Part shown: positions 39,697 through 62,953 of the stretch, one piece after another | Numbering within the stretch: the first letter of the stretch is position 1 | Layout: each line of letters begins with the position of its first letter | Source: Aquisalimonas sp. | GTDB lineage: Bacteria > Pseudomonadota > Gammaproteobacteria > Nitrococcales > Aquisalimonadaceae | Assembly: GCA_007126095.1 (NCBI GenBank) | Contig: SLBZ01000079.1 | Coordinates: 1 to 64,000 of the forward strand | Reading direction: 5' to 3' | DNA: 64,000 nt | The notes under the pieces: model-generated | Databases searched by the model: none | Told to the model about the DNA's origin: nothing | Seen by the model: the letters and a program-made list of their open reading frames with translations, nothing else | Program-made: the position numbers and the translations under genes

Positions 39697-39711
39697 GACT
39701 TGATCCTCCGC

Positions 39712-40227
39712 TCAGCGCTCGAACACCTGCACTTCCTTCGGCTTCGGCGGGTTGAACCGCGCGGGAGCCGAAGGCGCCTGCTGTGCCCAGGCGCGCATGC
39801 GCTCGTAAGTGGTATCCGCCTCGTCGACATAGGTAATGGCGCCGGTGGGGCAGGCCTTGGCACACCAGGGGTCGCCGCCACAGAGGTCACACTTGATGAC
39901 CTTGCCGGAATCCGGCTCGTAGTTGACGGTGCCGAAGGGGCAGGCAATCGTGCACACCTTGCACCCCACGCAGACGTCCTCGAGCACGTTCTTGGAGCCC
40001 GTCGCCATATCGACGACGATGGCTTCCACAGGGCAGGCATGCATGCACCAGGCTTCCTCGCACTGGGTGCAGGTATAGGGAGCGAACTTGCCTTCCTCGT
40101 GGAAGCTGAAGACCTTGATTCGGGACTTGGCCGGGTTGAAGACGCCCTCGTTCTCGTAGGAACAGGCCATTTCGCACTGCAGGCACCCGGTACATTTCTC
40201 GGGTTCCAGTTTAAGAGCCATTGCCAT
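39712..40227 (-). CDS. polyferredoxin electron-transfer subunit (AorA-like)
   Basis: 171-residue iron-sulfur protein with four 4Fe-4S binding regions of the DMSO-reductase-type: CTGCLQCEMACS, CTQCEEAWCMHACP, CVGCKVCTIACP and CDLCGGDPWCAKACP. First gene of the aor operon; links the AOR catalytic subunit to the FAD subunit. Start ATG 40227 (MAMALKLEPEKCTGC); a promoter candidate is about 95-120 bp upstream. 15 bp separate it from the catalytic subunit gene. Confidence 0.92.
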   Translation of the reverse strand: MAMALKLEPEKCTGCLQCEMACSYENEGVFNPAKSRIKVFSFHEEGKFAPYTCTQCEEAWCMHACPVEAIVVDMATGSKNVLEDVCVGCKVCTIACPFGTVNYEPDSGKVIKCDLCGGDPWCAKACPTGAITYVDEADTTYERMRAWAQQAPSAPARFNPPKPKEVQVFER

Positions 40228-40385: not shown

Positions 40386-40418
40386 GCGCTGGTGGTGGAC
40401 CTGAAGGTCCACCCTACG
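40386..40418 (+). repeat. dispersed palindromic repeat, copy 1
   Basis: 33 bp with core GGTGGACCTGAAGGTCCACC (40394-40413), a 9-bp perfect stem, flanked by GCGCTGGT and CTACG. An identical 33-bp copy begins 55 bp later and an inverted copy lies further on. Resembles REP-type elements that gather in intergenic DNA. Confidence 0.8.
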
Positions 40419-40440
40419 GGGGCTGGCGGCGGACGGGCGT

Positions 40441-40473
40441 GCGCTGGTGGTGGACCTGAAGGTCCACCCTACG
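40441..40473 (+). repeat. dispersed palindromic repeat, copy 2
   Basis: Exact copy of the 33-bp unit at 40386-40418. The similarity also extends downstream through GGCTGGCGGCGG in both, with a 1-bp indel, so the two copies are an imperfect tandem duplication of about 46 bp plus spacer. Confidence 0.8.
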
Positions 40474-40501
40474 AGGCTGGCGGCGGGCCGGGGCAACGGG
40501 A

Positions 40502-40526
40502 CGTAGGGTGGACCTTCAGGTCCACC
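40502..40526 (-). repeat. dispersed palindromic repeat, inverted copy 3
   Basis: CGTAGGGTGGACC followed by TTCAGGTCCACC: the core and CTACG tail in the opposite direction, without the GCGCTGGT flank. With copy 2 it could fold into a longer stem. Lies 29 bp from the 3' end of the gamma-glutamylcyclotransferase-like gene. The rest of the 327-bp gap shows only the aor promoter candidate. Confidence 0.75.
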
Positions 40527-40554
40527 GGATCGGTGGCGCGCCGGGAGCCGGCCG

Positions 40555-40923
40555 TCAGGGCCGGGAGGAACGGAACCAGTCGCCTGAGGAGACCTGCGGC
40601 AGCCGCTGGCCACGGGGTCTGTAGAGGTAGATCCAGGCATCGCCCCAGGGTGTGGTCAGGGGCCGGCGCGTGTAGGTGCGGGGGTAGTCCTCGAGGGCGT
40701 CCAGCTCCCGGAACCGCGCGGGCGTCACGACGTAGACTTCGCCCCGGACCGCCGTCTGCCCACCGGGCACCACCCCGGGATACGGGCCGATGTCGAGCAT
40801 GGCGAACACCGGATCGGTGAGATGTTCGCCCAGCAAGCGCGCATCCTGCAACAACCGGTGATTGCTGCCTCCCCGGCGCAGGGTACCGTACACAAAGATC
40901 TGTTCTCCGAGCAGGCGGGACAC
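40555..40923 (-). CDS. gamma-glutamylcyclotransferase-like protein
   Basis: GGCT/AIG2-fold protein, 122 residues from GTG 40923. The family start is clear: IFVYGTLRRGGSNHRLL, followed by the conserved GEVYVVTPARFRELDALEDY with the catalytic-position Glu. Some members cleave gamma-glutamyl peptides; many have unknown substrates. GAGGAG 10 nt before the GTG lies inside the previous gene, whose stop is only 4 bp upstream, so it is the last gene of the chemosensory operon. A functional link is not evident. Confidence 0.8.
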   Translation of the reverse strand: MSRLLGEQIFVYGTLRRGGSNHRLLQDARLLGEHLTDPVFAMLDIGPYPGVVPGGQTAVRGEVYVVTPARFRELDALEDYPRTYTRRPLTTPWGDAWIYLYRPRGQRLPQVSSGDWFRSSRP

Positions 40924-40927
40924 GGGC

Positions 40928-43900
40928 CTAATGCTCCTCACTGAAGACCAGTACCCGGCCATTCTGCCAGCGTCCCTCGGCCAGTTGCGACACACGGAAA
41001 ACCAGGGTCCGTGGCCGGCCGTCGCCCCGCTTCACAGTGGTTTTCCAGGCATCCGACACTTCGCCGGGTGTGGTCACCACCGGCTCTGTCTCGCCCAGCA
41101 GGTCCAGCAACCGGTAGCCGACCAGCTCCGCGCCATCCCGGTTCAGCAGCGTCTTGGCCGCCGGATTCACGTAGTCGATGACACCATGCGCATCGGTCAC
41201 CACGATTCCCTCGGTGACACTGCGGGTAACCGTACTGAGGAACTCCAGTTGCTCGCGATGCTGCGCATCGACCGCGCGCATGGCGTCCAGCGCCTCGCTC
41301 TTGGACAGCACCGCGCCGGCATACTGGGCTAGCTGTACTCCGATCGCCTCATCGTCAGCGGTGAACTCGCCCCGGTAGCGGTCGGCACAGAACACCATGC
41401 CGATCACCCTTGCGTCATGATTGACGATGGGAACACCGAGACCACAGCGCGGAAAGCCCGCTTCGCCGTTTTCGTCCTCGAATTCTGCCTCGGTCAGCAG
41501 AACCGGCGCCTGGGACCGCCGCAGTTGCTCCCACAGCCAGTCGGGGGCAATCAGCTCCTGGCTGTCACTGAAACCGGCGTACTTCTCCGAAGCCGCGATC
41601 ACCGATGACAACCCCTGCCCCGCGGTGCTGTCCAGCACCGTCACCTGACACAGGTGCGACTCGAGCAGCTCACGCGACTCCCGGGCCAGTGTGTCCACGG
41701 CCCGTCGCCAGTTGCTGGTGGTGTTCAGCGCCAGAGAAATGCGGCCCAGCTCCCGCAGCCTCCGGGCGTAGATCTGCGCACGGGTAAGCGCTTCCTGCAG
41801 ATCGGTCTCGAACTCCACCCGTTGCGTCACATCGAGAATGAAGGCCAGCACACCGGTGGCCCGCCCCTCCGAGTCACGAGTCAGAGAGAGGGAGATCATC
41901 GCCGCGAACGCCTCACCGTCACTGTTCTCGAGCTGCAGCTGCAGCTCGTGCGCCCCCTTGAGAAGCACCGGCTCCATGAACTCACGGCGCAGGGACAACT
42001 GATCCGGCCCGGGGCGTAGCAGCCGCAGCGGGCTGCCCACCATGGCCTCTGCCTGATACCCGAACAGACGTTCGGCACCGCCATTCCAGAAGGTGATGTT
42101 GCCCGCCAGGTCCGAACCGATCACGGCCTCGTGGATCTGCTCGAGGATCTGGGCCTGGAAACGGAGCTGATCCCGGCTCTCCCGCGCCTCCGAAATGTCC
42201 CGCAGGTAGACGGCCACGCCGTCCTCGGTGGGATAGACGCGGACGTCCAGCCAGCGGTTCAGCGCCGGATCACGCACCTCCTCCACCAGCGGCTGGCCGG
42301 TCTCCATTACCTTGGTATACAGCGGATCGTAGATGGCGCGGTTCTCCGGGAACAGGTTCCACAACGGCTTCCCGATCACGTCTCGTCCCTTGATCCCAGC
42401 CATTTCGCAGATCACCCGGTTGACATAGGTCACCCGATAGCCGGCATCGAGTGTGAGAAAGCCATCAGCCAGACCATCCAGCGTGTGCTCGAGACGCAGG
42501 GCCGTAGCCTGCCGGCGGGCCTCCGTGCGTTCCCGCTCCACCATCACCAGTTGCAAGGCCTCGGCATTCCGGGCGGCGGTCACGGCGCGCTCCCGGGCCA
42601 GCAGGGCCAGACGCATGGCCACCAGGCCGATCAGCGCCAGCAGCACGCCGCTGAACAGCACCACATCGCCGACCCGTGACCGCTCCGCGGCGATCAGCGG
42701 CAGATCGGGCCAGGCGGTGGCTGTCCAGGTCGCACCGTACAGGGCGACCGTTCGCTCCGCCTGGACGAGACCACCCTCACCAGGCCCGACCTCCGGGCCG
42801 AACACGTGCGCGCCGTCGCGCTCGCGGACCTGAAAGACGAAACCGGGCTCGACACCGGCGCGGGCATGCCGGAACAACCCATCGAGCCGGCGCACACCAA
42901 TCAGGAATCCGCCGTCCCCTCCCTGATGCGGGGCCGGTGTAATCATGTAGACGAAGGCGCTGTCCCGGAGCCGCTGGAATACCGGCGAGAGACGTGTACG
43001 ACCAGTCTCGGCGGCGGCTTCCAATGGCAGGGCCGCGCGGCGGTCATGCTGAAACGCTTCGGGCGCCATGGCCTCCCGCCACAACCGGCCCTGCGACCAG
43101 CGCAGCACGCCCTCCGGTCCCAACAGACCGACGCCTTCCAGATCCGGAAAGTGGGTGAGGTAGGCCGCGGCGTCGCTTCGCCACTCCTCTTCGGTCAGGT
43201 CCGGCCGCTGTTCAAGGCGCCGCGCCATGCGCTCCATGGCCTCCACCCGCAGCCCCAGATCAGAGGCGACCACGACGTGGAAGCGGTCGAGAACGCCCTC
43301 GGTGCGCTCCACCCAGTGCCCGCGCTCCTCGTGCAGGATTACCTGCCAGAGCAACAACGTGCCCAGCAGCACACCACCGAACGCTGCAACGGGGAGCAGG
43401 AGACTGGCCCGTCCTTGCAACCGTGAGACGTCCCCGGGGTGCGGCGTTCCGGGCAGCAGGAATCCACCGGCCAGCCCCATCGCGAGCGCAGCCATCGGTA
43501 CATCGAGTAACCATAGCGCGACCGCCGCAATCAGGGCCGTGGCACCGGCGGCGCGCCAGGGAAAGGGCACGCGATCCGGGAGGCTGGCGACCAGCAGCAC
43601 GGCCGCAACCAGACCGCCAACGCTGCCGCCGGGCACGTCGGCGGGGACCACCCATCCGCCGGTCAAGGCCAGCAGCGACGCCGCGACCGCGATGGCGGCA
43701 AGCGACGCGGCGACCGTCGCGACACCGGCGAACAGGGTCATCCAGCCGGCGCCGGCCAATGCGAACGCCAGACCGGAGAAGACGGAAAGATCGCCGAGCA
43801 GTGATTCAACGCCGGTGAACCCGGCGGCGCCGGTGAGCACCAGACCGCCGGACGACAGCGTGGCGACGGCGCCGAGGCCGACGAGCGCCGCAGCCAGGAG

Positions 43901-43930
43901 TAGTCGGTAAGTGTCGAGCCACAGATTCAC
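40928..43930 (-). CDS. membrane CHASE-PAS-PAS-GAF-PAS sensor without output domain
   Basis: 1000-residue sensor. Start GTG 43930 has GGGAGGAGG 7 nt upstream, which overrides the long frame extending into the ParA gene. N-terminal 200 residues hold six to eight membrane helices (MASE-like). A periplasmic CHASE-like domain (about 210-420) is closed by another helix (VVLFSGVLLALIGLVAMRLA). Then PAS (about 470-580), PAS (about 590-710), GAF (about 730-870) and PAS (about 890-1000). No histidine kinase, GGDEF, EAL, HAMP-MCP or other output follows; it ends within the last PAS (NGRVLVFSEEH). It follows parA by 40 bp, inside the chemosensory operon, so it may signal by protein contact with the array. 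Confidence 0.85.
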   Translation of the reverse strand: MNLWLDTYRLLLAAALVGLGAVATLSSGGLVLTGAAGFTGVESLLGDLSVFSGLAFALAGAGWMTLFAGVATVAASLAAIAVAASLLALTGGWVVPADVPGGSVGGLVAAVLLVASLPDRVPFPWRAAGATALIAAVALWLLDVPMAALAMGLAGGFLLPGTPHPGDVSRLQGRASLLLPVAAFGGVLLGTLLLWQVILHEERGHWVERTEGVLDRFHVVVASDLGLRVEAMERMARRLEQRPDLTEEEWRSDAAAYLTHFPDLEGVGLLGPEGVLRWSQGRLWREAMAPEAFQHDRRAALPLEAAAETGRTRLSPVFQRLRDSAFVYMITPAPHQGGDGGFLIGVRRLDGLFRHARAGVEPGFVFQVRERDGAHVFGPEVGPGEGGLVQAERTVALYGATWTATAWPDLPLIAAERSRVGDVVLFSGVLLALIGLVAMRLALLARERAVTAARNAEALQLVMVERERTEARRQATALRLEHTLDGLADGFLTLDAGYRVTYVNRVICEMAGIKGRDVIGKPLWNLFPENRAIYDPLYTKVMETGQPLVEEVRDPALNRWLDVRVYPTEDGVAVYLRDISEARESRDQLRFQAQILEQIHEAVIGSDLAGNITFWNGGAERLFGYQAEAMVGSPLRLLRPGPDQLSLRREFMEPVLLKGAHELQLQLENSDGEAFAAMISLSLTRDSEGRATGVLAFILDVTQRVEFETDLQEALTRAQIYARRLRELGRISLALNTTSNWRRAVDTLARESRELLESHLCQVTVLDSTAGQGLSSVIAASEKYAGFSDSQELIAPDWLWEQLRRSQAPVLLTEAEFEDENGEAGFPRCGLGVPIVNHDARVIGMVFCADRYRGEFTADDEAIGVQLAQYAGAVLSKSEALDAMRAVDAQHREQLEFLSTVTRSVTEGIVVTDAHGVIDYVNPAAKTLLNRDGAELVGYRLLDLLGETEPVVTTPGEVSDAWKTTVKRGDGRPRTLVFRVSQLAEGRWQNGRVLVFSEEH

Positions 43931-43970
43931 CGAACGCCTCCTCCCTGCATGCGGTTGCGCTCCCTTGCCG

Positions 43971-44735
43971 TCAGGCAATTTCCCAGAGGGCTTCCAGCTC
44001 GTCGGCAAGCAGCCGGTAGTCCATGGCACCGCGGCTTGAGGGCGCATACTCAAGGATGGAACGCTCCGCTGCAAACGCCTCGGCAAGCCGGATGTCCGAG
44101 CGCACTCCCCGAAGCATGCGGAACGCGCCGAACTGATGGGCGAGGTCGTCCACCACCTGGCGGTGGAGGCGCACCCGCGGATCACGCATGACCGGCAGGA
44201 TGGCCAGGTACTGGAGCCGGGGATTGACGCGGCTGGCAATGCGGAAAAACAGCTGAACCAGCTGACGCACACCCTCGGCGGCAAGGGCGTGGGGCTGCAA
44301 CGGAACGACCACGCCGTGGGCGGCACCAAGGGCATTCTCCAGCAACGCACCGGCCGACGGCGGCGTATCGATGATGACCCGGTCCCAGGGCGTATCGGAC
44401 GCTGCGAGGAGTGCGGCGAGCCGTTCCGGCGGGGCATCGGGCTCACGCGGCGCACGGGTATCCGCCGGAATCACGTCCACGCCCTCGACACGCGACGGCA
44501 CCACCACGGCCGACAGCTGCTCCACCTCGCCGGCCAGAAGTTGCTGACTGCCCGGCTGGCCACGCGCCGGCCTCACGCCGAGACCGAGTGCCGCATGTCC
44601 CTGGCTGTCCAGGTCGATCACCAGGGTGCGCAGGCCCTGTCGCGCCCAGGCGGCGGCAAGATTCACCGCCGTCGTCGATTTCCCGGTCCCGCCCTTGCGG
44701 TTGGAAACGGCGACCACGAAGGGTTCAGTCGTCAT
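43971..44735 (-). CDS. ParA-family ATPase of the chemosensory cluster
   Basis: 254-residue ParA/MinD-type ATPase. Walker A VSNRKGGTGKSTTAVNLAAA (signature lysine present), Walker A' LVIDLDSQGHAALGLG and Walker B VIIDTPPSAGALLENAL. Genes of this type in chemotaxis operons (ParC, PpfA, PomZ-like) place chemosensory arrays or receptors at poles or along the nucleoid. Located after the STAS gene (23 bp) and before the CHASE-PAS-GAF sensor. No ParP-type CheW-fusion adaptor is present; the STAS or triple-CheW protein could take that part. That is inference. Confidence 0.9.
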   Translation of the reverse strand: MTTEPFVVAVSNRKGGTGKSTTAVNLAAAWARQGLRTLVIDLDSQGHAALGLGVRPARGQPGSQQLLAGEVEQLSAVVVPSRVEGVDVIPADTRAPREPDAPPERLAALLAASDTPWDRVIIDTPPSAGALLENALGAAHGVVVPLQPHALAAEGVRQLVQLFFRIASRVNPRLQYLAILPVMRDPRVRLHRQVVDDLAHQFGAFRMLRGVRSDIRLAEAFAAERSILEYAPSSRGAMDYRLLADELEALWEIA

Positions 44736-44758
44736 GGCTTACACCGATGGCGTCATGG

Positions 44759-44998
44759 TTATGTGCCAGTGATCGCGGGGGTGACCCAGCGCGCCAGAAA
44801 CGGATCGGACGGCTCTGCAGAGAGTGGCGGACGCACCGCCATGAGCACCTGCAGCACGGCGGCATGCAGATGGCCGCACTCCTTGAGGTTGACCTTGCCC
44901 TGGGGATTGGCCTGCAGCCACTGTAACAGTTCCTCCGCTTCCTCGACGGTGCACGTTCCCTCGAGCCGGGCCACGGTCTTGCGGTAGTCGATGGGCAT
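44759..44998 (-). CDS. STAS-domain protein
   Basis: 79-residue single STAS fold. The usual Ser/Thr phosphorylation position of anti-anti-sigma factors (the DSSG loop) reads LHAAVLQV, so it is not expected to be a kinase target and resembles MlaB-like non-phosphorylated STAS proteins. ATG 44998 lies 1 bp after the CheA stop with GGGAG upstream inside cheA, implying translational coupling. Probably an adaptor in the chemosensory complex or for ParA. Confidence 0.75.
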   Translation of the reverse strand: MPIDYRKTVARLEGTCTVEEAEELLQWLQANPQGKVNLKECGHLHAAVLQVLMAVRPPLSAEPSDPFLARWVTPAITGT

Positions 44999-44999
44999 G

Positions 45000-47693
45000 T
45001 CAGAGCAACTCCCTGAGGTTGAGCACCAGAAGCACACGGCCATCGCCGAGCAGGGCCGTACCGGAGTAAGCGCGGATACTTGCCAGCACACCTTCCATGG
45101 GCTTGACGATCACATCGAGGCCCTCCTGGAAGTCGTCCACAACCAGCCCGACGGGGCCCTCGGGCTGCCGCACCACGAGCACAGTCACCTGGGGCTCGTC
45201 GTACGTGGCATCCACCCGCGCCCGGCGATCACTCTGGGCGCCGTCGAGCATGAGGAGCTTATCCAGGCGCCGCAGCGGGATCACCTCGTCGCGGAGCACG
45301 ACCGCCTCCTCCTGTTTGACTTTTCGGACGGCAGACTCAGGCAGCCGCACCGTCTCCACCACGCTCTCCATGGGGACACCAAAAAGCTGGCCGGCCACCT
45401 CCACGCCCATGACGTAGGACACGGCCATGGTCAGTGGCATGGCAAGGCGCAGCCGCGTGCCCCGGCCCTGCTCGCTGGCCACGGACACGGAGCCACCGTA
45501 GCGATTCACGGTGCTGCGGACCACGTCCATGCCGACGCCACGGCCGGAGAGATCGGATACGGCGTCGCGGGTAGAGAATCCGGGGGTGAAGATCAGCTGC
45601 AGGCTCTCTTGATCGGTGAGCCGCTCCGCTTCCGCCTGGCTGATCAGCTCCTTGTCCACGGCCTTGCGGCGCAGGGCGGCCGGATCCAGCCCGCCGCCGT
45701 CGTCCTCCACTTCGACGATGACATGCTCGCCCTCCTGGCGCGCCGCCAGGCGGATCGTGCCCTGGGCGGGCTTGCCCGCCGCCTGCCGTGCCTCGGGCGA
45801 CTCGATGCCGTGATCGATGCTGTTGCGGACCATGTGCGTCAGCGGCTCGCCGAGGACCTCGATGACGGTCTTGTCCGCCTCGGTCTGCTCGCCTTCCTGC
45901 ACCAACTCGATCTGCTTGTCCAGACGCCGGGAGAGATCTCTTACGAGGCGCGGGAATCGCTGGAAGATCTGCGCCATGGGCAGCATCTGCACCTGCATGA
46001 CGGCGCCCTGCATGTCCTGTGCAATGCGGCTGATGACGTTAAAGCGCTCTTTCAGTTCCCGCGCAAGATCGCGCACGCCATACTCGTGCTCGGCCCGTTC
46101 AGCGAGGAACGGGAAGCTGTTCTTGGCGACCACCAGTTCACCGACCAGGTCGCCCAGGAAATCGATGCTCTCGGCATCCACGCGGAAGCTCTTGGTCGAT
46201 CGCTCTCCACCCGCCGTCTCAACCGCAGGGGCCGCGGACGTCGCCGGAACGCCCTGTGCACCGCCCTGAACAACCGCGCGCAGGGGCTCCAGATCACCCT
46301 TGGCGGCGTTCTCCAGCGCCGTGTCGACAGCGTCATCCGCCTCGCCCAGGGCAACCAGGGCCCGCTTGAGCACACGGCCGGCCGCGGCAACATGACCGGC
46401 CGCTGCCGCATCATCGGTGTCCACCGCGCCCAGCATGGCCAACTGCTCCTGCATGACGGCACGCACCGCCTGCGGATCGATCGCCGACACGTCCGCGCGG
46501 GACTCGCCCGCCAGCGGTGCTGCGTCCCCCACCGGGCCCACGGCGGCAACAGACGCGGGCGCGGCTTCCGTATAGTCCGGGTCCGGTTCGGGCTCGGGTT
46601 CCGGTTCCGGCTCCTGCGCCGACGGCGTCGTCACGGCCACTCCCAGCTCCCGCAAGAGTGCGGCCACGTGGTCCTGACGGTCGGCATCCAGCGCCACGAC
46701 CAGCCAGGCCAACGCACTGCCCTCCCGGATGTCCGGGCTGACCAGAGTGGCCATGGCTTCTGCGGAGCGCCGCAACGCCGTATGGTCGCCAGCGGCGTGG
46801 AGTTCGGGCGCGCTGGCGAGAAACTCCTCCAGCATGGTGGCGTCACCAGGCTCACCGCCCGCGAAAACCAGGGCGTCCGCCGGCACGCGCTCGCAACGCA
46901 GGGTCTCCTCGTCCTCGAACGCAAACTCCGCAGCCACCGCATCCGCACCGCTGCTGGCCAGGCCGCGGAATCGCAGCCGGCAGTCATAGGCGTCCATGGA
47001 CTCCGGTTCGTCCCAGGGTGTGGCGGGCTCGATGGCCAGCCATACCAGCCTCTCCACGTTGCGGACCAGCAGCAGCGGATCACCGCCCGTGAAGAAGGCC
47101 CCGCTTTCGGGCTGAAACTCGAACAGCGCCAGCTCCGCCCCGTCCTGCCAGGCGGCCATCACGGCTTCACGCCGCTGCGCATCCGGTATCGCCGCAAGCC
47201 ATTCGGGTTGCCAGCCGGCATCCTCGACGGGGGGAGCCGGCGTCGGGGTGTCCGGGGCCACCGGCTCCGCGACCGGAGCCGCATCGGCGTCGGCTGCCGT
47301 GTCGACGGTGTCACCCGCGGCATGGCGCAGCTTGTCGACCAGGGCCTGGCTGGCGGCGGCCGCGTCCGGCGGCAGCACCTCGTCACGCTCGATGGCGTCG
47401 ATCCAGCGGTTGACCTGATCGAGCACGTCCAGGAGCTGGTCCACCAGCGCCCCCTGCAGCGGGCGCTCGCCCTGGCGGACTTCGTCCAGCAGGTTCTCGG
47501 CCTGGTGCATGAGGTCGGTCATGGGGTCGAAGTCGAACAGACCGGAGCCGCCCTTGGTGCTGTGCATGGCCCGGAATACCCGGTCCATGGCATCTCGGTC
47601 GGTCGGGTCTTTCTCCAGCGCCAGCAGGCCGGAGGCCGCGTCCTCGAGAAACTCCCGGGTCTCTTCCACGAATTGTTTCAACAGGGGATTCAT
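45000..47693 (-). CDS. cheA: chemotaxis histidine kinase CheA
   Basis: 897 residues from ATG 47693 (GGAG 9 nt upstream; overlaps the cheY stop by ATGA). HPt/P1 domain at 1-110 with phospho-acceptor His44 in FRAMHSTKGGSG. A long region without a P2 CheY-binding domain follows: a 180-residue unknown segment (about 180-350), an EPEPEPEP run and an alanine-rich helical segment. Dimerisation P3 (about 525-600), catalytic P4 with N-box HMVRNSIDHGIE (about 620), G-boxes DDGGGLD and SGRGVGMDVV, and the CheW-like P5 (about 755-897). No C-terminal receiver. Kinase residues are intact. Confidence 0.93.
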   Translation of the reverse strand: MNPLLKQFVEETREFLEDAASGLLALEKDPTDRDAMDRVFRAMHSTKGGSGLFDFDPMTDLMHQAENLLDEVRQGERPLQGALVDQLLDVLDQVNRWIDAIERDEVLPPDAAAASQALVDKLRHAAGDTVDTAADADAAPVAEPVAPDTPTPAPPVEDAGWQPEWLAAIPDAQRREAVMAAWQDGAELALFEFQPESGAFFTGGDPLLLVRNVERLVWLAIEPATPWDEPESMDAYDCRLRFRGLASSGADAVAAEFAFEDEETLRCERVPADALVFAGGEPGDATMLEEFLASAPELHAAGDHTALRRSAEAMATLVSPDIREGSALAWLVVALDADRQDHVAALLRELGVAVTTPSAQEPEPEPEPEPDPDYTEAAPASVAAVGPVGDAAPLAGESRADVSAIDPQAVRAVMQEQLAMLGAVDTDDAAAAGHVAAAGRVLKRALVALGEADDAVDTALENAAKGDLEPLRAVVQGGAQGVPATSAAPAVETAGGERSTKSFRVDAESIDFLGDLVGELVVAKNSFPFLAERAEHEYGVRDLARELKERFNVISRIAQDMQGAVMQVQMLPMAQIFQRFPRLVRDLSRRLDKQIELVQEGEQTEADKTVIEVLGEPLTHMVRNSIDHGIESPEARQAAGKPAQGTIRLAARQEGEHVIVEVEDDGGGLDPAALRRKAVDKELISQAEAERLTDQESLQLIFTPGFSTRDAVSDLSGRGVGMDVVRSTVNRYGGSVSVASEQGRGTRLRLAMPLTMAVSYVMGVEVAGQLFGVPMESVVETVRLPESAVRKVKQEEAVVLRDEVIPLRRLDKLLMLDGAQSDRRARVDATYDEPQVTVLVVRQPEGPVGLVVDDFQEGLDVIVKPMEGVLASIRAYSGTALLGDGRVLLVLNLRELL

Positions 47694-48061
47694 GACAACA
47701 CTCCACTCATGAGCCGCACCCGACTCAGCAGCACTTCCGGCTGCACGGGCTTGGCCATGTGCAGGTTGGCGCCGGCGCTCAGGGCCTGTTCCCGGTCCCC
47801 GGCCGCGCCTTCCGTCGTGACCATGATGACGGGCACGCCGATGTCGGGCCCGTCCGTACGCACCCGGCGGACGCACGTGTAGCCATCCATTCGTGGCATG
47901 TTCACGTCTACCAGCAGCAGGTCATACGGTGTATCGGCAAGACGCTCCAGTGCCTCAAGCCCGTTGACGGCCTCGTCGACGTCGAACCCGTCCTGCTCCA
48001 GCAGTTCTCGGTGGTAGAGGCGAACGGTCTGGGCGTCATCAACAACCAGTACGCGCGTCAT
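47690..48061 (-). CDS. cheY: CheY-like single-domain response regulator
   Basis: 123 residues: VLVVDDAQTVR acidic pocket, phospho-acceptor Asp in LLLVDVNMPRMDGY, Thr in MVTTEGA and conserved Lys in MAKPVQP. Output could be the motor or another target. Both ends overlap neighbours by 4 bp (ATGA with cheR stop and cheA start), so the genes are coupled. Confidence 0.92.
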   Translation of the reverse strand: MTRVLVVDDAQTVRLYHRELLEQDGFDVDEAVNGLEALERLADTPYDLLLVDVNMPRMDGYTCVRRVRTDGPDIGVPVIMVTTEGAAGDREQALSAGANLHMAKPVQPEVLLSRVRLMSGVLS

Positions 48062-48933
48062 GTCTGGTCCTCCTCCGGTCTCTGGTAGACGATGGCCTCG
48101 GGGAAGCGCGCCGGCTTGAACAGCGACGAGATGCGGCTCATGAACTCTGAGTGCCCGAGGCAGATGTAGCCGCCCGGGTTGAGGGCATCGTAGAGCGTCT
48201 CCGCCGCCCGTCTCCGGGCTGCATCATCGAAATAGATCAACAGGTTGCGACAGAACACAACATCGAAGCCGCGATAGGGGCGGGTCTCCAGCGGATCTTG
48301 GAGATTGACGCGGCTAATGCGGATGGAATCGCGGATGCTCTTGAGGATCTGGTGGCTACCATCGGGCAGCCGCCGGAAATAGCGCTTCAGCAGCGGTCCC
48401 GGCAGGGCGTGCAGGGCACGACCCTCGTAGATCCCCTGATTCGCCTTCTCCAGTGCGCGGGTGTCTATGTCGGAGCCGATCAGTTCCACGTTGTAATCGT
48501 CCACATCGTCCCAGTACTCCAGCAGGTACAGCGCCAGGGAATACACCTCTTCACCCGTGGAACAGGGCAGCGACCAGATGCGCACGGTCTCGCCCGGCTT
48601 CTTGCGCTTCACCACCCGCGGGAGCATGGACCGCACCAGGCACTGGAACTGGTACTCCTCGCGAAAGAAGTACGTCTCGTTCACGGTCATGCTATTGACC
48701 AGTTCCTGCAGCTCGGCGCCGTCCGTCTCGAAACGCAGGCGCACGAAGTATTCGCGGAACGTACCGCAACCCGTGGCACGCATGCGGGCCAGCAGGCGCT
48801 TGTCCACGTAGTAGCGCTTGTTCTCCTCGAACCAGTTGCCGGTCTTGCGGTAGTAAAATTCGCGGAAGCGGGTGAAATCCTCGTACCCGATGCCGGGCAC
48901 CTCCGTTGCCTCACGGGGAGCGTCAGCGGCCAT
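48058..48933 (-). CDS. cheR: chemoreceptor methyltransferase CheR
   Basis: SAM-dependent methyltransferase for glutamates of the receptor. 291 residues from ATG 48933 (GAGGAG upstream). N-terminal helical domain, then VRIWSLPCSTGEEVYSLAL (SAM motif I), NVELIGSDIDTRALEKA and [15 protein letters not shown]. No TPR extension. Stop overlaps cheY. Start overlaps the HEAT gene stop by 11 bp. Confidence 0.94.
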   Translation of the reverse strand: MAADAPREATEVPGIGYEDFTRFREFYYRKTGNWFEENKRYYVDKRLLARMRATGCGTFREYFVRLRFETDGAELQELVNSMTVNETYFFREEYQFQCLVRSMLPRVVKRKKPGETVRIWSLPCSTGEEVYSLALYLLEYWDDVDDYNVELIGSDIDTRALEKANQGIYEGRALHALPGPLLKRYFRRLPDGSHQILKSIRDSIRISRVNLQDPLETRPYRGFDVVFCRNLLIYFDDAARRRAAETLYDALNPGGYICLGHSEFMSRISSLFKPARFPEAIVYQRPEEDQT

Positions 48934-49567
48934 CACCGCGCTCCTCACCGGTGATGCGCCGCTCCGCCGTGCGGACCGCGAAGGCGATGAAGGGCTCACC
49001 GGGAAACCGGGCGGGCAGCTGGCGCAAGGCATCGAGGCAGTGGTCGTCGCCCACTTCGGTGAGCACATCCACCGCCGCGGCGCACACGTTCACGTGATCG
49101 TCGCGCTCGAGAACACCGCGAAGCCAGTCGGGCACGCGCTCGTGACGCAGCGACTCCAGGATGTTCACGGCGAAGATGCGCACGTCGGAGTCGGGATCCG
49201 CCAGGAGCTCATCCATGTACCCCGCGGCGAGCTTCGGCATGCCCTGAAGCACCTCGATAGCACCGTTGCGCAGGGCGGCATCCTCGCTGCGCAGGAGTGG
49301 CAGCAGCCGCTCCTGCACCCGCTGACCGCCAGTGACCAGCAGCGCCGTGAGCATGGCGTGGCGACAGCCCTCGTCCTGCTCCCGCTCCAGTGCGTCGCAG
49401 AGCGCGTCGACGGCGCCGGCATCACCAGCCAGCTCCCGCGAGGCACGCCGCCTCGCCACCGGACGCTTGTCATCGAGCTGGGCGATCAGCCCTTCCCTGT
49501 CTCGCGGGATCTCGCGCCGCTCCTGCCCCGGTGCCGGAGCAGCGTCATCGCGTCGGATCAAAGGCAT
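48923..49567 (-). CDS. HEAT-repeat protein in chemosensory operon
   Basis: 214 residues made of about four HEAT/PBS-lyase-type helical repeats: GAVDALCDALEREQDEGCRH, VQERLLPLLRSEDAALRNGA, MDELLADPDSDVRIFAVNIL, VPDWLRGVLERDDHVNVCAA. Likely protein-protein scaffold. It starts at ATG 49567, sharing one base with the cheB stop (TGATG), and ends inside cheR. No catalytic motif. Role unknown; position between cheB and cheR suggests an effect on receptor methylation or array assembly. Confidence 0.85.
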   Translation of the reverse strand: MPLIRRDDAAPAPGQERREIPRDREGLIAQLDDKRPVARRRASRELAGDAGAVDALCDALEREQDEGCRHAMLTALLVTGGQRVQERLLPLLRSEDAALRNGAIEVLQGMPKLAAGYMDELLADPDSDVRIFAVNILESLRHERVPDWLRGVLERDDHVNVCAAAVDVLTEVGDDHCLDALRQLPARFPGEPFIAFAVRTAERRITGEERGDGR

Positions 49568-50628
49568 CAGGCCACCTCCCCGTCACGGAGCCAGTCCAGC
49601 AGACGGGCGCCAATCCGGTGGCAAGGCAGGATCTCCTGGGCACCGCCCTGTTCGATCAGCTCGTGCGGCATGCCGAAGACCACCGCCGTCTCCTCGGATT
49701 CCGCAATGGTCCGTGCGCCGCGACGATGCCAGGCCGCCATGGCGGCCGCGCCGTCGTCACCCATGCCGGTGAGGAGCACGCCCACCAGCGCGCCGGCATC
49801 CACCTGGCCATCAGCACTTTCCAGAAAACGGCCAACAGAAGGGTGCCAGAGATAGTCCGGGTTGGCCGGCGTCGGCACCAGCGTCAGCCCTTGGGCGCGG
49901 CGGCTCAGGGTGATGTCCGCATCGCCGCGCGCCACGTGGATGACGCCCACCTCAAGGGCAGTGGGCCGGGCGATCTCCTGCACCGCCATGGCGCACATAC
50001 CGTCGAGACGGCGGGCGAACACGCTGGTAAAGCTGGCAGGCATGTGCTGGATCACCAGCACGGGCCAGTCCAGGTCCGCCGGCAGCCGTGGCAGAATTTC
50101 CTCCAGCGTCCGCGGCCCACCGGTGGAGACACCGATGACGAGCAGACGCTCCACGGCACCCCCGCTCCGCGCCGGCCGCGGCTGCGGTGGTGCCGGTTTC
50201 GCGGCCGGCTCAGCCGATGTCCGGCCGAGACGGCGCCCTCCCGCTGCTGCACGGACCTTGGCGACCAGATCCCGCTGGATACTCTCCAGATCCGTGGAGA
50301 TCGTTCCGCCGGGTTTGGCGATATAGTCGAAAGCACCGAGTTCGATGGCCTCGAACGTCGCGAGCGCGCCCTTCTCCGTCAATGAGGAGACCATGATCAC
50401 CGGACACGGGTTGTCCATGACCATGAGGTGGCTCAGACAGGTGAGGCCATCCATGGTCGGCATGTGAATGTCCAGGGTGATCACATCCGGCCGCAGCCGC
50501 TGCACCTGCTCCAGGGCATCCTCGCCATTCCGCGCAATCTCCACGCGGATATCCGGCTCTGCTTCGAGCGCCTCCCGCAGGGCACGGCGCATCAGCGCCG
50601 AGTCGTCAACGACCAGAACTGTCAGCAT
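49567..50628 (-). CDS. cheB: chemoreceptor methylesterase CheB
   Basis: 353 residues. Receiver (1-120) with VLVVDDSALMRR, VITLDIHMPTMDGL and AKPGG; methylesterase (about 160-350) with catalytic Ser in VIGVSTGGPRT, His in VIQHMPASFT and Asp in LLTGMGDDGAAAM. Complete, so both phospho-regulation and demethylation should work. Overlaps the triple-CheW gene by 7 bp and the HEAT gene by 1 bp. Confidence 0.95.
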   Translation of the reverse strand: MLTVLVVDDSALMRRALREALEAEPDIRVEIARNGEDALEQVQRLRPDVITLDIHMPTMDGLTCLSHLMVMDNPCPVIMVSSLTEKGALATFEAIELGAFDYIAKPGGTISTDLESIQRDLVAKVRAAAGGRRLGRTSAEPAAKPAPPQPRPARSGGAVERLLVIGVSTGGPRTLEEILPRLPADLDWPVLVIQHMPASFTSVFARRLDGMCAMAVQEIARPTALEVGVIHVARGDADITLSRRAQGLTLVPTPANPDYLWHPSVGRFLESADGQVDAGALVGVLLTGMGDDGAAAMAAWHRRGARTIAESEETAVVFGMPHELIEQGGAQEILPCHRIGARLLDWLRDGEVA

Positions 50629-52145
50629 TGGGGCTCCAGGTTTGCCATGGCGACCTCTTCGGCCGCCGCTTCGACCCGCGCGGCCAGGCCGGCAGGGTCC
50701 AGTAAGAGCGTCATGCCGCCGTTGTCATCCATGGCAACCCGCGTAAGCAGGTCGGTGTGTCGTGTGGCGTTGCCCGGGGCCGGAGCAATGCTGGCGCGGG
50801 CCACCTGTTCAACGCTGAGCACCGCATCCACCCCGAAGCCGAGCCAGCCCGACTCCCGCCGCAGCACCAGCACCCGTGCCCGCTCACTGTCGGGAACCGG
50901 ACCGAGCCCCAGGTAGTCGCGCAGCCCGATGATGGGCAGAATACTGCCGCGCAGGTTCAACGCCCCCTCCACCAGCGCGGGCGCCCGCGGCACCCGTGTG
51001 AGCCGCTCGGGCGGGCGCAGAATCTCCTTCACCGCGTCGATTGGCACACCGTACGGGCGCCCTGCCAGCTCGAAGGTCACGAACTGCTCCACCGCCGACG
51101 GATCGTCGGCGGCACCGGAGACGTCATCGCGATTGAGCACAGCTGCCAGATCCCGGTCGTGCAGGAGCTGCTCGGCGTCCAGAACCGACACCAGACGGCC
51201 ATCCTCCAGCCGTCCCACGGCGCTGCACTCCTGCAGGCCGCCACCCTGGCGCATGATCTCTGGCAGCGGGTCGACCCGGTGAGCGGGTACCCGCAGAACC
51301 TCCCGGGCCGCATCCGCCACCAGCCCCACCACGGCGCCGTCGAGGGAATCCCGGTCGCCGGCCAGCGGCACAACCAGGACGCGCCGCTCCGCTTCGCCAT
51401 CGTGCTCCGGCAGATCGAAGTAGCGGGCCAGGTCCAGTAGCGGCAGCGGGCGGTCGCGCCAGTCGGCGATCCCGAGCATGGCGGGCGGGCCGTCCGGGAC
51501 GGCGGTGGTCACCTCCGGTTCGCGCAGGATCTCGACCACCTGGCGCAACGGCAGTGCAAACGTCTGTCCCGCCACATCCAGTCCAATGAGTTCCCGCCGC
51601 TGCCCGGCCGTTTCCGCCTGTTCCGCCGTGCCCCCCAGGCTGCCGCCCCCGGAGCGCTCCAGGGTCTCGGTGGTCACGATCTCCAGGCCAACATTGGCAA
51701 TGAGGCGCTCCAGGTCGACGCACTGCACCAGGCGGTCGCAGCGGTGCACCACCCCTTCCAGCCAGGGCAGATCGACGACGCCGGTGACGTTCTCGGCGGG
51801 CCGGACATCGCCGGGATCAAGGACGGTGGCTTCCAGCACCGCGTCCACCAGCAGCCCCAGCCCGTCACGCAGGCTGGTGACCAGCACGCGCGCATCCTCC
51901 CCCGGTTCGACGGCGGGATACCCGAGAAGCTGGCGCAGATCTGCCACCGGAATGACCTGGCCACGCAGGTTCACGGCGCCGATCACGGCGTCGTGGCTGA
52001 GCGGGACCGGTGTGACCTCAGGGACGCGGATTATCTCCCGCACCGGCGCCATGGCGACCGTGTAGGCTCCGTCACCCAGGGCGAACACCAGGTGCTGACC
52101 GTCACTGTCCCCCGGTGCCGTCTGTACTTCGCCTGCCGTGCCCAT
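50622..52145 (-). CDS. triple CheW-domain scaffold protein
   Basis: 507 residues with three CheW folds in tandem: about 10-150 (LVFALGDGAYTVAMAPVREI), about 195-340 (LIGLDVAGQTFALPLRQVVE) and about 365-505 (FVTFELAGRPYGVPIDAVKE). Each has the CheW NLRGQVIPVADLRQLLG-type strand, though domain 2 has WRDRPLPLLDLARYF in place. It can bridge several receptors and CheA molecules, and replaces a normal single-domain CheW, which is absent here. ATG 52145 (GGTGAG upstream) and GTG 52157 are both possible. Follows the receptor gene by 16 bp. Confidence 0.9.
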   Translation of the reverse strand: MGTAGEVQTAPGDSDGQHLVFALGDGAYTVAMAPVREIIRVPEVTPVPLSHDAVIGAVNLRGQVIPVADLRQLLGYPAVEPGEDARVLVTSLRDGLGLLVDAVLEATVLDPGDVRPAENVTGVVDLPWLEGVVHRCDRLVQCVDLERLIANVGLEIVTTETLERSGGGSLGGTAEQAETAGQRRELIGLDVAGQTFALPLRQVVEILREPEVTTAVPDGPPAMLGIADWRDRPLPLLDLARYFDLPEHDGEAERRVLVVPLAGDRDSLDGAVVGLVADAAREVLRVPAHRVDPLPEIMRQGGGLQECSAVGRLEDGRLVSVLDAEQLLHDRDLAAVLNRDDVSGAADDPSAVEQFVTFELAGRPYGVPIDAVKEILRPPERLTRVPRAPALVEGALNLRGSILPIIGLRDYLGLGPVPDSERARVLVLRRESGWLGFGVDAVLSVEQVARASIAPAPGNATRHTDLLTRVAMDDNGGMTLLLDPAGLAARVEAAAEEVAMANLEPQC

Positions 52146-52161
52146 GCCAGCGCTCACCGGA

Positions 52162-54102
52162 TCACCCACCGTTCTGCAGCTGATCCGCCAGGGAGGCGAT
52201 CTCCTCGGCCGCGGCCGCCAGCTCTTCCCCGGCCTGGTGCTGCTGGGTGGACGCCGTGGCGGCCTCGCTGGTGGACTGTTCGGCCTCCGTGGCCGCGGCG
52301 GCGATCTGCTCGATCCCCGTTTTCGCCTCGCCAACGGACTCGGTAATGGTGCGCGAGGCTTCGGCGATCTCCCGGTTCCCCTCCATCACCCTTTTTACCG
52401 TGTCTTCCACCTTGCGAAGGTCGCGCAGGATGCTTTCGTTGTTCTGGGTCTCCTCGTCAGCGCTCGCAGCGATCTGCTCCATCAGTGAGCGCACGTCGGC
52501 GATGTCATCCTGGGCCAGGCCGACCACCTCCTCGATGCGGCCGGCATTCTCCGAGGCATCCGAGGCCAGGTTGCGGATGTCGGTGGCGACCACCGTGAAT
52601 CCCTTTCCATGCTCCCCGGCGCGGGCCGCCTCGATGCCGCCATTGACGGCCAGCATGCTGGTCTGGACGTTGACCATGTTGATGCCACCCATGGTCTTGT
52701 CGATGCGGCGGGTCACAAGTTCCAGTTCGCGCACGCGCTTACGCACATCGCGGGACTGATCCGCGCCAGTCGCAACGCTGCTGGCAAGCTCCTCGACGGT
52801 CTGGCGGTTCTCCTGCAACTTGGTGAACGCCTCGTCGCCCAGTTCCAGGATCTTCTGCGTCTGCTCCGACGCCTGGTTGGCGCCCTGCTCAAGCTGGGTG
52901 ATGGCGGCGGCCGCCGCCTCGCCGGCGCGACTCTGCTGGCGCGCGCCCTTGTTGATCTGCTCGATGGCCGTGGACACCTGCGTGGACGAGCGATGGATCT
53001 CCTCCACCGACGTCGCCAGCTGCTCGGCCGCCGCCGCCACTTCCTCGGCGCTGCGATCGATGTCGGTGTTGTCGCGGAGGTTCTCGGACAGCTCCGAGAG
53101 GTTCTCGGTGGCCTCCTGGCACTGGTTCAGTGCGCTGGTCTGCTCACCCGCCATGCGCACCGCCTCTTCACAGGCGGACGCCTGCTCTTCGGCGGCGCTG
53201 GCGATGGTCTCGGCCTCCTTCTGCACCCGTTCGGCCGCTTCCGCCGACTCGTCGGCGATGCGGCGAATGGACTGGCCGCTGGCCTGCATGGTCTCCATGG
53301 ACTTGCGGACGTCTTCGAGCTGCTGCGTGATCCGGTCGCCGGCGTCTGCGTTCTCCTGACCCTGCTCCGCGGTCCGGCGGATGTCACCGGTGACGGCCTC
53401 CACCTCCGTCTGGATGCGCGTCACCAGCTCCTGAATTTCGGAAGCGCTCTTCTGCGACAGCTCCGCAAGGCTGCGCACCTCGTCTGCGACCACTGCGAAG
53501 CCCTGGCCGTGCTGGCCGGCCCCGGCCGCTTCGATGGCGGCGTTCAGGGCCAGGAGGTTGGTCTGATCGGCGATCCGGGTCACCGCCTTGACGATGTCGC
53601 CCACCTCTTCCGCCCGCGTAGAGAGCGTATCCGCCCCTTCCACCGCACGCCCCTGGCGTTCGATGCCCCGTTTCACCACGTCTACCAGGTCCTCGATGGC
53701 ATCACCGCTACTGGTGACCTGTTCGGTCATGGTGTCGAGCCGCTTCACCGCCGCGCGGGTGTTGTCCCGCTGCTGGGTGACCGCACTCGCCACCTGGGAG
53801 ACCGACCCGAGGGTCTCCTGCGAGGATCCGGAGGCCTGTTCGGCGCCCACGGCGATCTGGTTCATGGAGCGGCGCAGCTCCTCCGCAGCGGATGACGACT
53901 GGGCAACGCTGCTGCCGAGCTGCGCCACGGCCGCGGCGATCCGCTCGGCGGCCTGCTGACGTTTGGCCAGGGTGCGCGCCCGGCGCCGTGCCGCCTCCGC
54001 CTCGCGGCGTGAGTGCTGCCCGTTGTCGGCCGTGGAGCCTCCCGACTCCGCGTCGTGCTCCGAACCTCCGTTGTCCAGTTCGGATTTCTTCACCAGAGCC
54101 AT
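52162..54102 (-). CDS. soluble methyl-accepting chemoreceptor with two signalling tips
   Basis: 646 residues from ATG 54102 (GGAGAG upstream). No membrane helix, signal peptide or recognisable ligand domain; the whole chain is coiled coil. Two hairpin tips are present: tip 1 about 178-213 (IADQTNLLALNAAIEAAGAG) and tip 2 about 477-513 (MVNVQTSMLAVNGGIEAARA). Tip 1 keeps QTNLLALNAA but has Gly at the conserved Arg of AARAG. Tip 2 keeps AARAGE but changes QTN to QTS and LNAA to VNGG. The 300-residue spacing suggests an internal duplication. First gene of the operon. Confidence 0.88.
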   Translation of the reverse strand: MALVKKSELDNGGSEHDAESGGSTADNGQHSRREAEAARRRARTLAKRQQAAERIAAAVAQLGSSVAQSSSAAEELRRSMNQIAVGAEQASGSSQETLGSVSQVASAVTQQRDNTRAAVKRLDTMTEQVTSSGDAIEDLVDVVKRGIERQGRAVEGADTLSTRAEEVGDIVKAVTRIADQTNLLALNAAIEAAGAGQHGQGFAVVADEVRSLAELSQKSASEIQELVTRIQTEVEAVTGDIRRTAEQGQENADAGDRITQQLEDVRKSMETMQASGQSIRRIADESAEAAERVQKEAETIASAAEEQASACEEAVRMAGEQTSALNQCQEATENLSELSENLRDNTDIDRSAEEVAAAAEQLATSVEEIHRSSTQVSTAIEQINKGARQQSRAGEAAAAAITQLEQGANQASEQTQKILELGDEAFTKLQENRQTVEELASSVATGADQSRDVRKRVRELELVTRRIDKTMGGINMVNVQTSMLAVNGGIEAARAGEHGKGFTVVATDIRNLASDASENAGRIEEVVGLAQDDIADVRSLMEQIAASADEETQNNESILRDLRKVEDTVKRVMEGNREIAEASRTITESVGEAKTGIEQIAAAATEAEQSTSEAATASTQQHQAGEELAAAAEEIASLADQLQNGG

Positions 54103-54396
54103 CTGTATCTCTCCGTGCTGGGGATTCGCACCATCGCGAACCGCGCATGCCCGCGCGCCGGACCCGTGACCCGGCAAGCGCTACTCAATCCGGGTTATCG
54201 GCGGACCACCTGCGGGCTTGAGCACGGAAATCGACGCCAGCAAAGACGCGCTGTCGAAGGGCGAAACCCGCGGTTGCGGCCCTCCTCGCCCCTCCATAGA
54301 ATGAATCGCGTTGTTGGCTGCCCCGCACGGATGACGCGACGCCGACGCCCGACTCATCCACACGGCTGCCAGACAGCAGCCGCCCAGAGGCTGCGA
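54103..54396. other. divergent intergenic region between receptor and CheB-CheR kinase genes
   Basis: 294 bp that must hold the promoters of both the chemosensory operon (minus) and the CheB-CheR-kinase gene (plus). I found no strong sigma70 or sigma28 hexamer pair, repeat or hairpin. The plus-strand open frame reading through it continues into the kinase gene but has no start site support. Confidence 0.4.
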
Positions 54397-62877: not shown

Positions 62878-62892
62878 GGCAGGTTACCTCCT
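62875..62892 (-). promoter_or_regulatory. strong ribosome site with ATT start codon
   Basis: On the minus strand AGGAGG (62892-62887), 9 nt, then ATT (62877-62875). An in-frame TAA at 62886-62884 excludes any earlier start in this frame, and no ATG, GTG or TTG occurs until GTG 62823. ATT starts are known for infC and pcnB. Confidence 0.55.
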
Positions 62893-62953
62893 GATGACGG
62901 CGCTCCCTGCCCACGATTTCCCCACGATTCCTGATTAAGAGCTGTTCAGACGT

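What the first reader, a model, noticed from the sequence alone, without database searches (positions are those of the whole stretch)
40555..54102. Chemosensory operon of unusual composition
Eleven overlapping or closely spaced genes: double-tip soluble receptor, triple CheW, CheB, HEAT repeat, CheR, CheY, CheA, STAS, ParA, CHASE-PAS-GAF sensor, GGCT. There is no single CheW, CheZ, CheD or transmembrane receptor. The receptor, adaptor and positioning ATPase are encoded together, so it may form a self-contained cytoplasmic array whose input comes from the output-less sensor. I do not recall this combination as a described system.
Basis: partly seen in the sequence, partly recalled or inferred. 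Interest (0 to 1): 0.75.

Follow-up and report, generated by a model that had tools for sequence, protein, structure and literature searches.

The report
F9 sensing array with own ParA
This bacterial operon encodes a known kind of internal chemical-sensing system (class F9), predicted to form a double-layered protein array inside the cell, together with an ATPase of an F9-associated ParA family that likely shares the array out between daughter cells and a membrane sensor that stands where related operons encode a receptor.

Summary
The eleven genes are there, but the combination is not new. A double-tip receptor (DosM) plus a triple CheW marks the F9 chemosensory class, known from Vibrio cholerae cluster I. 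The order DosM-CheW3-CheB-HEAT-CheR-CheY-CheA-STAS recurs in 58 of 64 sufficiently long loci from several phyla, so HEAT and the STAS-like protein are regular F9 genes. Usually a second CheY and a single-tip receptor follow; in the window's genus a membrane sensor without output domain and a GGCT stand there instead. ParA is no oddity: 45 of 73 distinct F9 genomes have this ParA type, 36 of them in or near the F9 cluster, and 19 tested form a clade apart from 13 Soj/ParC-type proteins (100/99). I found no paper linking ParA to F9. All 44 ParA-bearing DosM tested begin with a basic tail; 11 of 27 ParA-less ones lack the basic residue, but the tree-aware test has no power. Best reading: an F9 array partitioned by its ParA through DosM's N-terminal tail, as with PpfA/TlpT in Rhodobacter.

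The parts
52162..54102 (-). DosM: soluble receptor with two signalling tips 300 residues apart; basic N-terminal tail MALVKK, then conserved ARTLAKRQQAAER
   Evidence: two MCPsignal stretches; tips at 181 and 481; no hydrophobic segment
50622..52145 (-). CheW3: adaptor of three CheW domains
   Evidence: CheW, 3 stretches, E 7.6e-88
49567..50628 (-). CheB methylesterase (receiver + CheB)
48923..49567 (-). HEAT-repeat protein, a regular F9 gene
   Evidence: HEAT_2 E 6e-18; present in 70 of 71 eligible loci
48058..48933 (-). CheR methyltransferase
47690..48061 (-). CheY (first F9 CheY)
   Evidence: Response_reg; groups with F9 CheY1, apart from CheY2
45000..47693 (-). CheA kinase with Hpt, dimerisation, ATPase and CheW domains
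44759..44998 (-). small STAS-like protein, a regular F9 gene
   Evidence: present in 62 of 64 eligible loci; STAS_2 sub-threshold
43971..44735 (-). ParA of the F9-associated family
   Evidence: AAA_31; clade of 19 F9-associated ParAs, 100/99 against 13 presumed Soj/ParC
40928..43930 (-). membrane sensor: about 7 hydrophobic segments, PAS-PAS-GAF-PAS, no output domain; stands where other F9 operons have CheY2-MCP
40555..40995 (-). gamma-glutamylcyclotransferase-like protein (GGACT); start uncertain
   Evidence: Pfam GGACT 1.5e-25; also follows the sensor in G371

Best explanation
The operon encodes an F9-class chemosensory system (DosM, triple CheW, CheA, CheY, CheB, CheR), which is predicted to build a double-layered cytoplasmic array that the co-encoded ParA, of an F9-associated family, likely partitions over the nucleoid through DosM's basic N-terminal tail, while the co-encoded membrane sensor would feed the array its input. 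Shown by sequence: F9 membership, the conserved gene order, the ParA clade and its linkage to F9 clusters, the fixed 300-residue spacing of the two DosM tips, and the conserved tail. Inferred: array formation here (by analogy with Vibrio cholerae), ParA binding to nucleoid and to the tail (by analogy with PpfA/TlpT, PomZ/PomX and ParA/ParB), and sensor input. Steps proposed: DosM dimers span two CheA/CheW3 baseplates; ATP-bound ParA coats the nucleoid; the tail (MALVKK...) stimulates its ATPase, so the array is tethered, split and inherited; CheR/CheB adapt the receptor; CheA phosphorylates CheY. In most F9 operons a second CheY and a single-tip receptor with a CheZ-like site follow; in this genus that pair is missing from the operon and the membrane sensor plus GGCT occupy its place. 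The final output target is not known.
For: F9 signature described as double-domain DosM plus CheW3 (PMC9321776 passages; PMC7534058 passages). Same gene order in 58 of 64 loci with room, HEAT 70 of 71, STAS-like 62 of 64. This ParA type in 45 of 73 distinct F9 genomes and linked to the cluster in 36 (my tally). Profile scores listed at E <= 1e-55 are bimodal, 254-393 bits against 190-204. The 19 F9-associated ParAs are one side of a branch against 13 presumed Soj/ParC, 100/99. Tips exactly 300 residues apart in 67 of 67 DosM in which both tips matched my pattern, of 71 examined; the other 4 matched one tip. Basic residue at position 4/5 of the DosM tail in 44 of 44 ParA+ and 16 of 27 ParA- rows; two adjacent basic residues in 41 of 44 and 13 of 27; the neighbouring coil motif is kept in 44 of 44 and 27 of 27. 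Precedent: PpfA positions the Rhodobacter cytoplasmic array through the N-terminus of TlpT (PMC3964821 passages), and ParA/MinD activators share short basic N-terminal extensions (PMC7993993 passages).
Against: The tail-ParA association is confounded by descent: independent pairs give on average 1.5 concordant, 0 discordant, 4.5 uninformative, not significant; 8 of the 11 ParA-less rows without the residue belong to one clade, and one (L136) has no recognisable start. 16 of 27 ParA-less rows keep the basic residue, so the tail may have another role, for example direct DNA binding as in FrzCD. 28 of 73 F9 genomes show no ParA of this type, so it is not essential to the class; some absences may be MAG gaps. 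Whether this ParA type also occurs in genomes without F9 was not tested. Sensor input rests on operon position only. A fully helical 300-residue span would be about 45 nm (my arithmetic), longer than the 35 nm between Vibrio baseplates; unresolved.
Confidence: 0.6

Rival explanations
1. DosM's basic tail binds the nucleoid directly, as the FrzCD tail does, and ParA acts on another component such as CheW3 or HEAT, or only helps segregation indirectly.
For: FrzCD binds DNA through a basic N-terminal tail (PMC5716589 passages). The basic residue persists in 16 of 27 ParA-less rows.
Against: The conserved part is a short extreme N-terminal motif (MA[LI] then K/R at position 4 or 5), not merely charge. 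All rows that lack the basic residue are ParA-less.
Confidence: 0.25
2. The sensor and GGCT are passengers or serve something else; the array's input comes from separately encoded receptors, for example the CheY-MCP pair about 11 kb upstream or cytoplasmic receptors elsewhere in the genome.
For: The genome has 20 MCP-signal matches over cut-off, in 18 proteins including DosM. The upstream CheY groups with F9 CheY2 (support 100), and its receptor shares the CheZ-like motif and ELF end. In Vibrio cholerae at least one further cytoplasmic receptor is thought to join the F9 array. Only 3 sensor homologues matched.
Against: Sensor and GGCT follow ParA in two genomes of the genus, with the F9 tail pair missing there; a third sensor homologue, a CheW3 (84%) and a ParA (92%) are each given a longest contig of 32058 bases, so probably share one operon too (inferred). 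The protein has no output domain of its own.
Confidence: 0.45
3. ParA is an ordinary chromosome or F6-type positioning ATPase (Soj or ParC) that happens to lie in the operon.
For: ParA-family neighbours are common (general knowledge), and V. cholerae's F6 array uses ParC.
Against: The F9-associated ParAs separate from presumed Soj and the own presumed ParC at 100/99; the genome has those paralogues in addition, at 36% and 30% identity; linkage to F9 in 36 genomes.
Confidence: 0.05

Closest known systems
F9 chemosensory class / Vibrio cholerae cluster I (DosM VC1403, triple CheW VC1402, CheA VC1397)
   Same: Double-tip DosM, triple CheW, CheA, CheY, CheB and CheR in one cluster. The locus numbers leave single slots where HEAT and STAS-like stand here (inference).
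   Different: ParA directly after STAS; the second CheY and single-tip receptor after STAS are missing; a membrane sensor and GGCT are added.
Rhodobacter sphaeroides CheOp3 with PpfA and TlpT
   Same: Cytoplasmic array with a ParA-like ATPase encoded beside its receptor; receptor with a basic N-terminal extension as proposed ATPase activator.
   Different: [quoted passage not shown] that it lacks a triple CheW is recalled. Whether PpfA and F9 ParA are one clade was not tested.
ParC/ParP positioning of F6 arrays (Vibrio; Halothiobacillus ParC)
   Same: ParA-family ATPase that positions a chemosensory array.
   Different: The presumed ParC of the own genome (C65) is only 30% identical and lies outside the F9-associated clade. 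No ParP-like gene is among the eleven genes.

Membership tests
F9 chemosensory class | receptor with two signalling domains in tandem (DosM) | tested here: met
   two MCPsignal stretches; two tips 300 residues apart
F9 chemosensory class | adaptor of three concatenated CheW domains | tested here: met
   three CheW stretches
F9 chemosensory class | CheA, CheY, CheB and CheR in the same cluster (full rather than partial F9) | tested here: met
F9 chemosensory class | shared gene order with other DosM/CheW3 loci | tested here: met
   58 of 64 loci with room have the order DosM to STAS-like, as the window does
F9 chemosensory class | usual tail: second CheY plus single-tip receptor (typical, not stated as defining) | tested here: not met
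   absent after ParA in the window and G371; no match to either profile after ParA in G380; CheY2 seen in 56 of 63 other loci with room
F9 chemosensory class | purely cytoplasmic double-layered array | not testable with these tools
   needs cryotomography; reported for V. cholerae
PpfA-type array-partitioning system | ParA-type ATPase with Walker A lysines, encoded with a cytoplasmic array | tested here: met
   NRKGG...K invariant in 13 of 13 rows; AAA_31
PpfA-type array-partitioning system | cargo receptor with a basic N-terminal extension | tested here: met
   MALVKK tail
PpfA-type array-partitioning system | tail stimulates ATPase; ATPase binds nucleoid | not testable with these tools
   biochemistry needed
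PpfA-type array-partitioning system | common ancestry with PpfA | not tested
   PpfA was not placed in the tree
ParC / Soj | groups with ParC or Soj in a tree | tested here: not met
   19 F9-associated rows apart from 13 presumed Soj/ParC, support 100/99
CHASE-domain sensors | CHASE domain in the extracytoplasmic part | tested here: inconclusive
   no CHASE match at E <= 1 in the window protein; CHASE4 at 0.062 in one homologue

The most novel reading that the evidence does not exclude
F9 arrays carry their own partition machine: DosM is at once the ruler of the double layer (tips exactly 300 residues apart) and the cargo adaptor whose extreme N-terminal MALVKK peptide drives a dedicated F9 ParA. 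In this genus the operon's single-tip receptor and second CheY have been replaced by a membrane sensor, so that a wholly cytoplasmic array takes its signal from a membrane protein that is not a chemoreceptor.
Probability: 0.3. Interest if true: 0.7.

Novelty: new variant of a known kind. Interest (0 to 1): 0.5.

Why it matters
The role, input and positioning of F9 arrays are open questions (PMC7534058 calls the system functionally still poorly understood). A ParA clade that travels with F9 and a conserved DosM tail turn the positioning question into a single peptide and ATPase assay. The HEAT and STAS-like genes, present in nearly every F9 locus examined with room for them, are not named in the main texts of the two F9 papers searched for those words and are candidate array components. 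F9 arrays have been proposed as cell-free biosensors, so knowing the full part list is useful.

Tried and rejected
c-di-GMP output: in the window's family the F9 operon lies near a GGDEF-EAL / SpoIIE / STAS module, but across 46 F9 loci GGDEF ORFs in the 10 kb upstream are not enriched (6 seen with my own profile, 4.5 expected from Pfam counts per genome, p 0.30). Rejected as a general output.

Second double-tip receptor of this genome (C106, 767 aa, tip spacing 286) as an F9 rod: also present in G369, G374 and G381, for which no full-length CheW3 was found, so not tied to F9.

Tail receptor as a CheZ fusion: the site is present in 17 of 18 complete tail receptors. In an alignment of 17 rows Q, D, Q and the final F are invariant, but I had left out L056, the one without the site, and L186, a near copy, and had added the receptor upstream of the window operon. 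hhalign puts the site on CheZ's with low probability (12%, E 0.0025). Pfam CheZ is sub-threshold (3 of 17 members; G803 and G800 tail receptors at 5e-4 and 1e-3), and an ordinary receptor of the own genome (C103) scores as well, at 6e-4 over other model positions. Kept as a lead; homology not claimed.

STAS fold: no PDB match by sequence, hhalign against a true STAS gave 0.9%, structure job failed.

The reading that the upstream CheY-MCP pair is simply the moved F9 tail: it groups with CheY2 (100) but forms its own subclade (88), and a like MCP-STAS-SpoIIE module exists in Thiospirillum, which has a normal F9 CheY2. Left open. In that tree one row (L037_Y2) is a receiver of the GGDEF protein that my score rule mislabelled.

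Full report
What is there. Eleven minus-strand genes fill 40555-54102; apart from the GGCT, whose start is unsure, they overlap by 1-11 bases or lie 1-40 bases apart. Pfam confirms DosM with two MCP signalling stretches, CheW3 with three CheW domains, CheB, HEAT, CheR, CheY, a complete CheA, ParA, a PAS-PAS-GAF-PAS sensor and a GGACT protein. The STAS label is weak: STAS_2 is the most frequent Pfam match of the protein family (14 of 20 members) but below threshold in the window protein. CHASE is not supported. The host is close to Aquisalimonas: the sensor's nearest named homologue is from A. asiatica (63%) and a close DosM relative (76%) from an Aquisalimonas MAG; this naming is inferred.

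It is F9. PMC9321776 (passages read) names double-domain DosM and the triple CheW as architectures unique to class F9, found in full in 64 of 2781 species. PMC7534058 (passages) gives V. cholerae cluster I as F9, with two opposing receptor layers spanned by DosM, function poorly understood. With a CheW3 alignment I found full three-domain hits in 9 of 369 genomes of the class, own genome included, plus split fragments in 2 more; in 5 of 59 relatives, own included; and hits in 9 of 398 genomes of the phylum at E <= 1e-70. Three genomes of the genus carry it (own, G370, G371); in G369 and G372 no three-domain hit was seen.

Gene order. A DosM N-terminal alignment gave 290 relatives, of which the best 80 loci were kept, from Gamma-, Beta- and Deltaproteobacteria, Acidobacteria, Thermodesulfovibrio, Thermovirga and Fervidicola among others. 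Among loci with room, CheW3 was found in 72 of 73, CheB 70 of 71, HEAT 70 of 71, CheR 70 of 71, CheY 70 of 71, CheA 67 of 68, STAS-like 62 of 64, CheY2 56 of 63; the exact order held in 58 of 64. Of the six exceptions one (L125) shows no F9 gene after DosM, one (L136) lacks STAS-like, and four are order swaps among overlapping stop-to-stop ORFs, which may be sorting effects. So HEAT and STAS-like belong to the F9 part list. The words HEAT and STAS occur 0 times in the main texts of PMC9321776 and PMC7534058; the 2016 PNAS paper on DosM is not held and supplements could not be read.

The tail. Complete tail receptors (18 examined) carry a CheZ-like [LIVM]Q[FYLIMV]xDxxxQ site 69-99 residues before the end in 17 and end in ELF in 17. 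Q, D and Q and the final F are invariant in an alignment of 17 rows that leaves out L056 (no site) and L186 and includes the receptor upstream of the window operon. CheZ homology is only hinted at (an ordinary receptor scores similarly), and one literature search for such receptors listed none that is called a CheZ-like chemoreceptor (listing only). In the window and G371 no CheY2-MCP follows; the sensor and GGCT do. In G380, same family, ParA is followed by no match to either profile.

ParA. My first survey saw no ParA inside the 10-kb flanks. Genome-wide searches changed that. Scores against the F9 ParA profile, listed at E <= 1e-55, are bimodal, 254-393 bits against 190-204. Counting distinct genomes, 45 of 73 have this ParA type, which used one protein as query, the distant G348 and G677 were accepted because their gene lies in the operon. 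36 have it in or near (within about 20 kb of) the cluster: 20 of 28 rows lie 10.3-16.3 kb downstream of DosM on the same strand, and searches show the rest. For the loci fetched the contig lengths agree with those, except Thiospirillum, whose ParA lies on another contig; for the other rows the shared contig is inferred from position, strand and fit. Three downstream layouts occur: STAS-ParA-CheY2-MCP, STAS-CheY2-MCP-ParA, and ParA several genes further on beside a receiver gene; in G519 ParA stands between CheA and CheY2. In a tree of 32 rows the F9-associated ParAs form one side of a branch (100/99) against presumed Soj-type proteins and the own presumed ParC. Whether the type occurs outside F9 genomes was not tested. 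On the DosM tree ParA presence changes at least 12 times, so the gene is often lost or gained.

DosM tail and ruler. The two tips are exactly 300 residues apart in 67 of 67 DosM in which both matched my pattern, of 71 examined, and in the window; of 18 further DosM ORFs, two of them truncated, 7 also give 300 (one the same species as L103) and the rest matched one tip or none. A different double-tip receptor in the same genome has 286. DosM typically starts MA[LI]xKK, then a variable linker, then a conserved coil start. A basic residue at position 4/5 is present in 44 of 44 ParA+ and 16 of 27 ParA- rows (Fisher 5e-6, uncorrected for kinship; 1e-5 without L136, whose start is not recognisable); the coil motif next to it is kept in all 71. 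Against: independent pairs give on average 1.5 concordant, 0 discordant and 4.5 uninformative, so descent alone could explain it.

Mechanism. PpfA positions the R. sphaeroides cytoplasmic array through the N-terminus of TlpT, thought to act in a ParB-like manner (PMC3964821 passages); deleting PpfA gives one large cluster that moves randomly (PMC10924463 passages); ParA/MinD activators share short basic N-terminal extensions (PMC7993993 passages). By analogy DosM would be scaffold and ATPase activator in one. A search for DosM with ParA and chemoreceptor lists six papers; passages of all six and a further listing show no F9-ParA link: ParA there means ParC of the F6 array, PpfA or the family in general. 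This covers open-licence papers only.

Surroundings. Upstream and divergent is a CheB/CheR/PAS/histidine kinase (ORF 54013-59292, +). Beyond it a minus-strand module runs past the window end: HK, CheY, two-TM receptor, STAS, REC-SpoIIE, GGDEF-EAL. It recurs in G371 beside F9 and in G380 on the same contig upstream of the F9 operon. GGDEF genes are not enriched upstream of F9 loci in general.

Verdict. Observation confirmed; claim of an undescribed system refuted for the core. To my knowledge and searches new: the ParA clade that travels with F9, the conserved DosM tail, HEAT and STAS-like as standing members, and the sensor-for-receptor exchange in this genus. New variant of a known kind.

Noticed in passing
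window 59305-64000 and on to C53:68839 (L033 6306-15840): Minus-strand module HK(GAF-HisKA-REC-Hpt), CheY, two-TM receptor with LQFEDISTQ and C-terminal DVELF, STAS, REC-SpoIIE-HATPase, PAS/Hpt/REC/GGDEF-EAL; recurs in G371 and G380, and partly in Thiospirillum.
   Followed up: partly
F9 loci, e.g. L041, L045, L058, L183, L190 tail receptors: 17 of 18 complete single-tip F9 receptors carry a CheZ-like Q..D...Q site and 17 of 18 end in ELF, resembling the C-terminal end of CheZ (GF): possibly a receptor with built-in CheY phosphatase and CheY-binding tail.
   Followed up: partly
G000:C106:17113-19413 (L016, L200): A second soluble double-tip receptor, 767 aa, tips 286 apart, with an unassigned C-terminal domain shared with another receptor (L014); found in relatives without full-length CheW3 too.
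   Followed up: partly
window 54013-59292 +: Divergent CheB-CheR-PAS-histidine kinase-receiver protein directly upstream of DosM; a counterpart stands in the same place in G371 and G380.
   Followed up: partly
window 40386-40534: Three copies of a 20-bp near-palindrome (GGTGGACCTGAAGGTCCACC and its complement) in the gap after the operon's 3' end, REP-like.
   Followed up: no
window 37846-40227 -: Aldehyde ferredoxin oxidoreductase and a 4Fe-4S protein directly downstream of the operon; the same neighbours in G371.
   Followed up: no
L183, L184, L185 beside the F9-associated ParA: In Ectothiorhodospira, ORFs that match the multi-domain GGDEF-EAL or HK references (which domain was not looked at) lie next to this ParA.
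   Followed up: no
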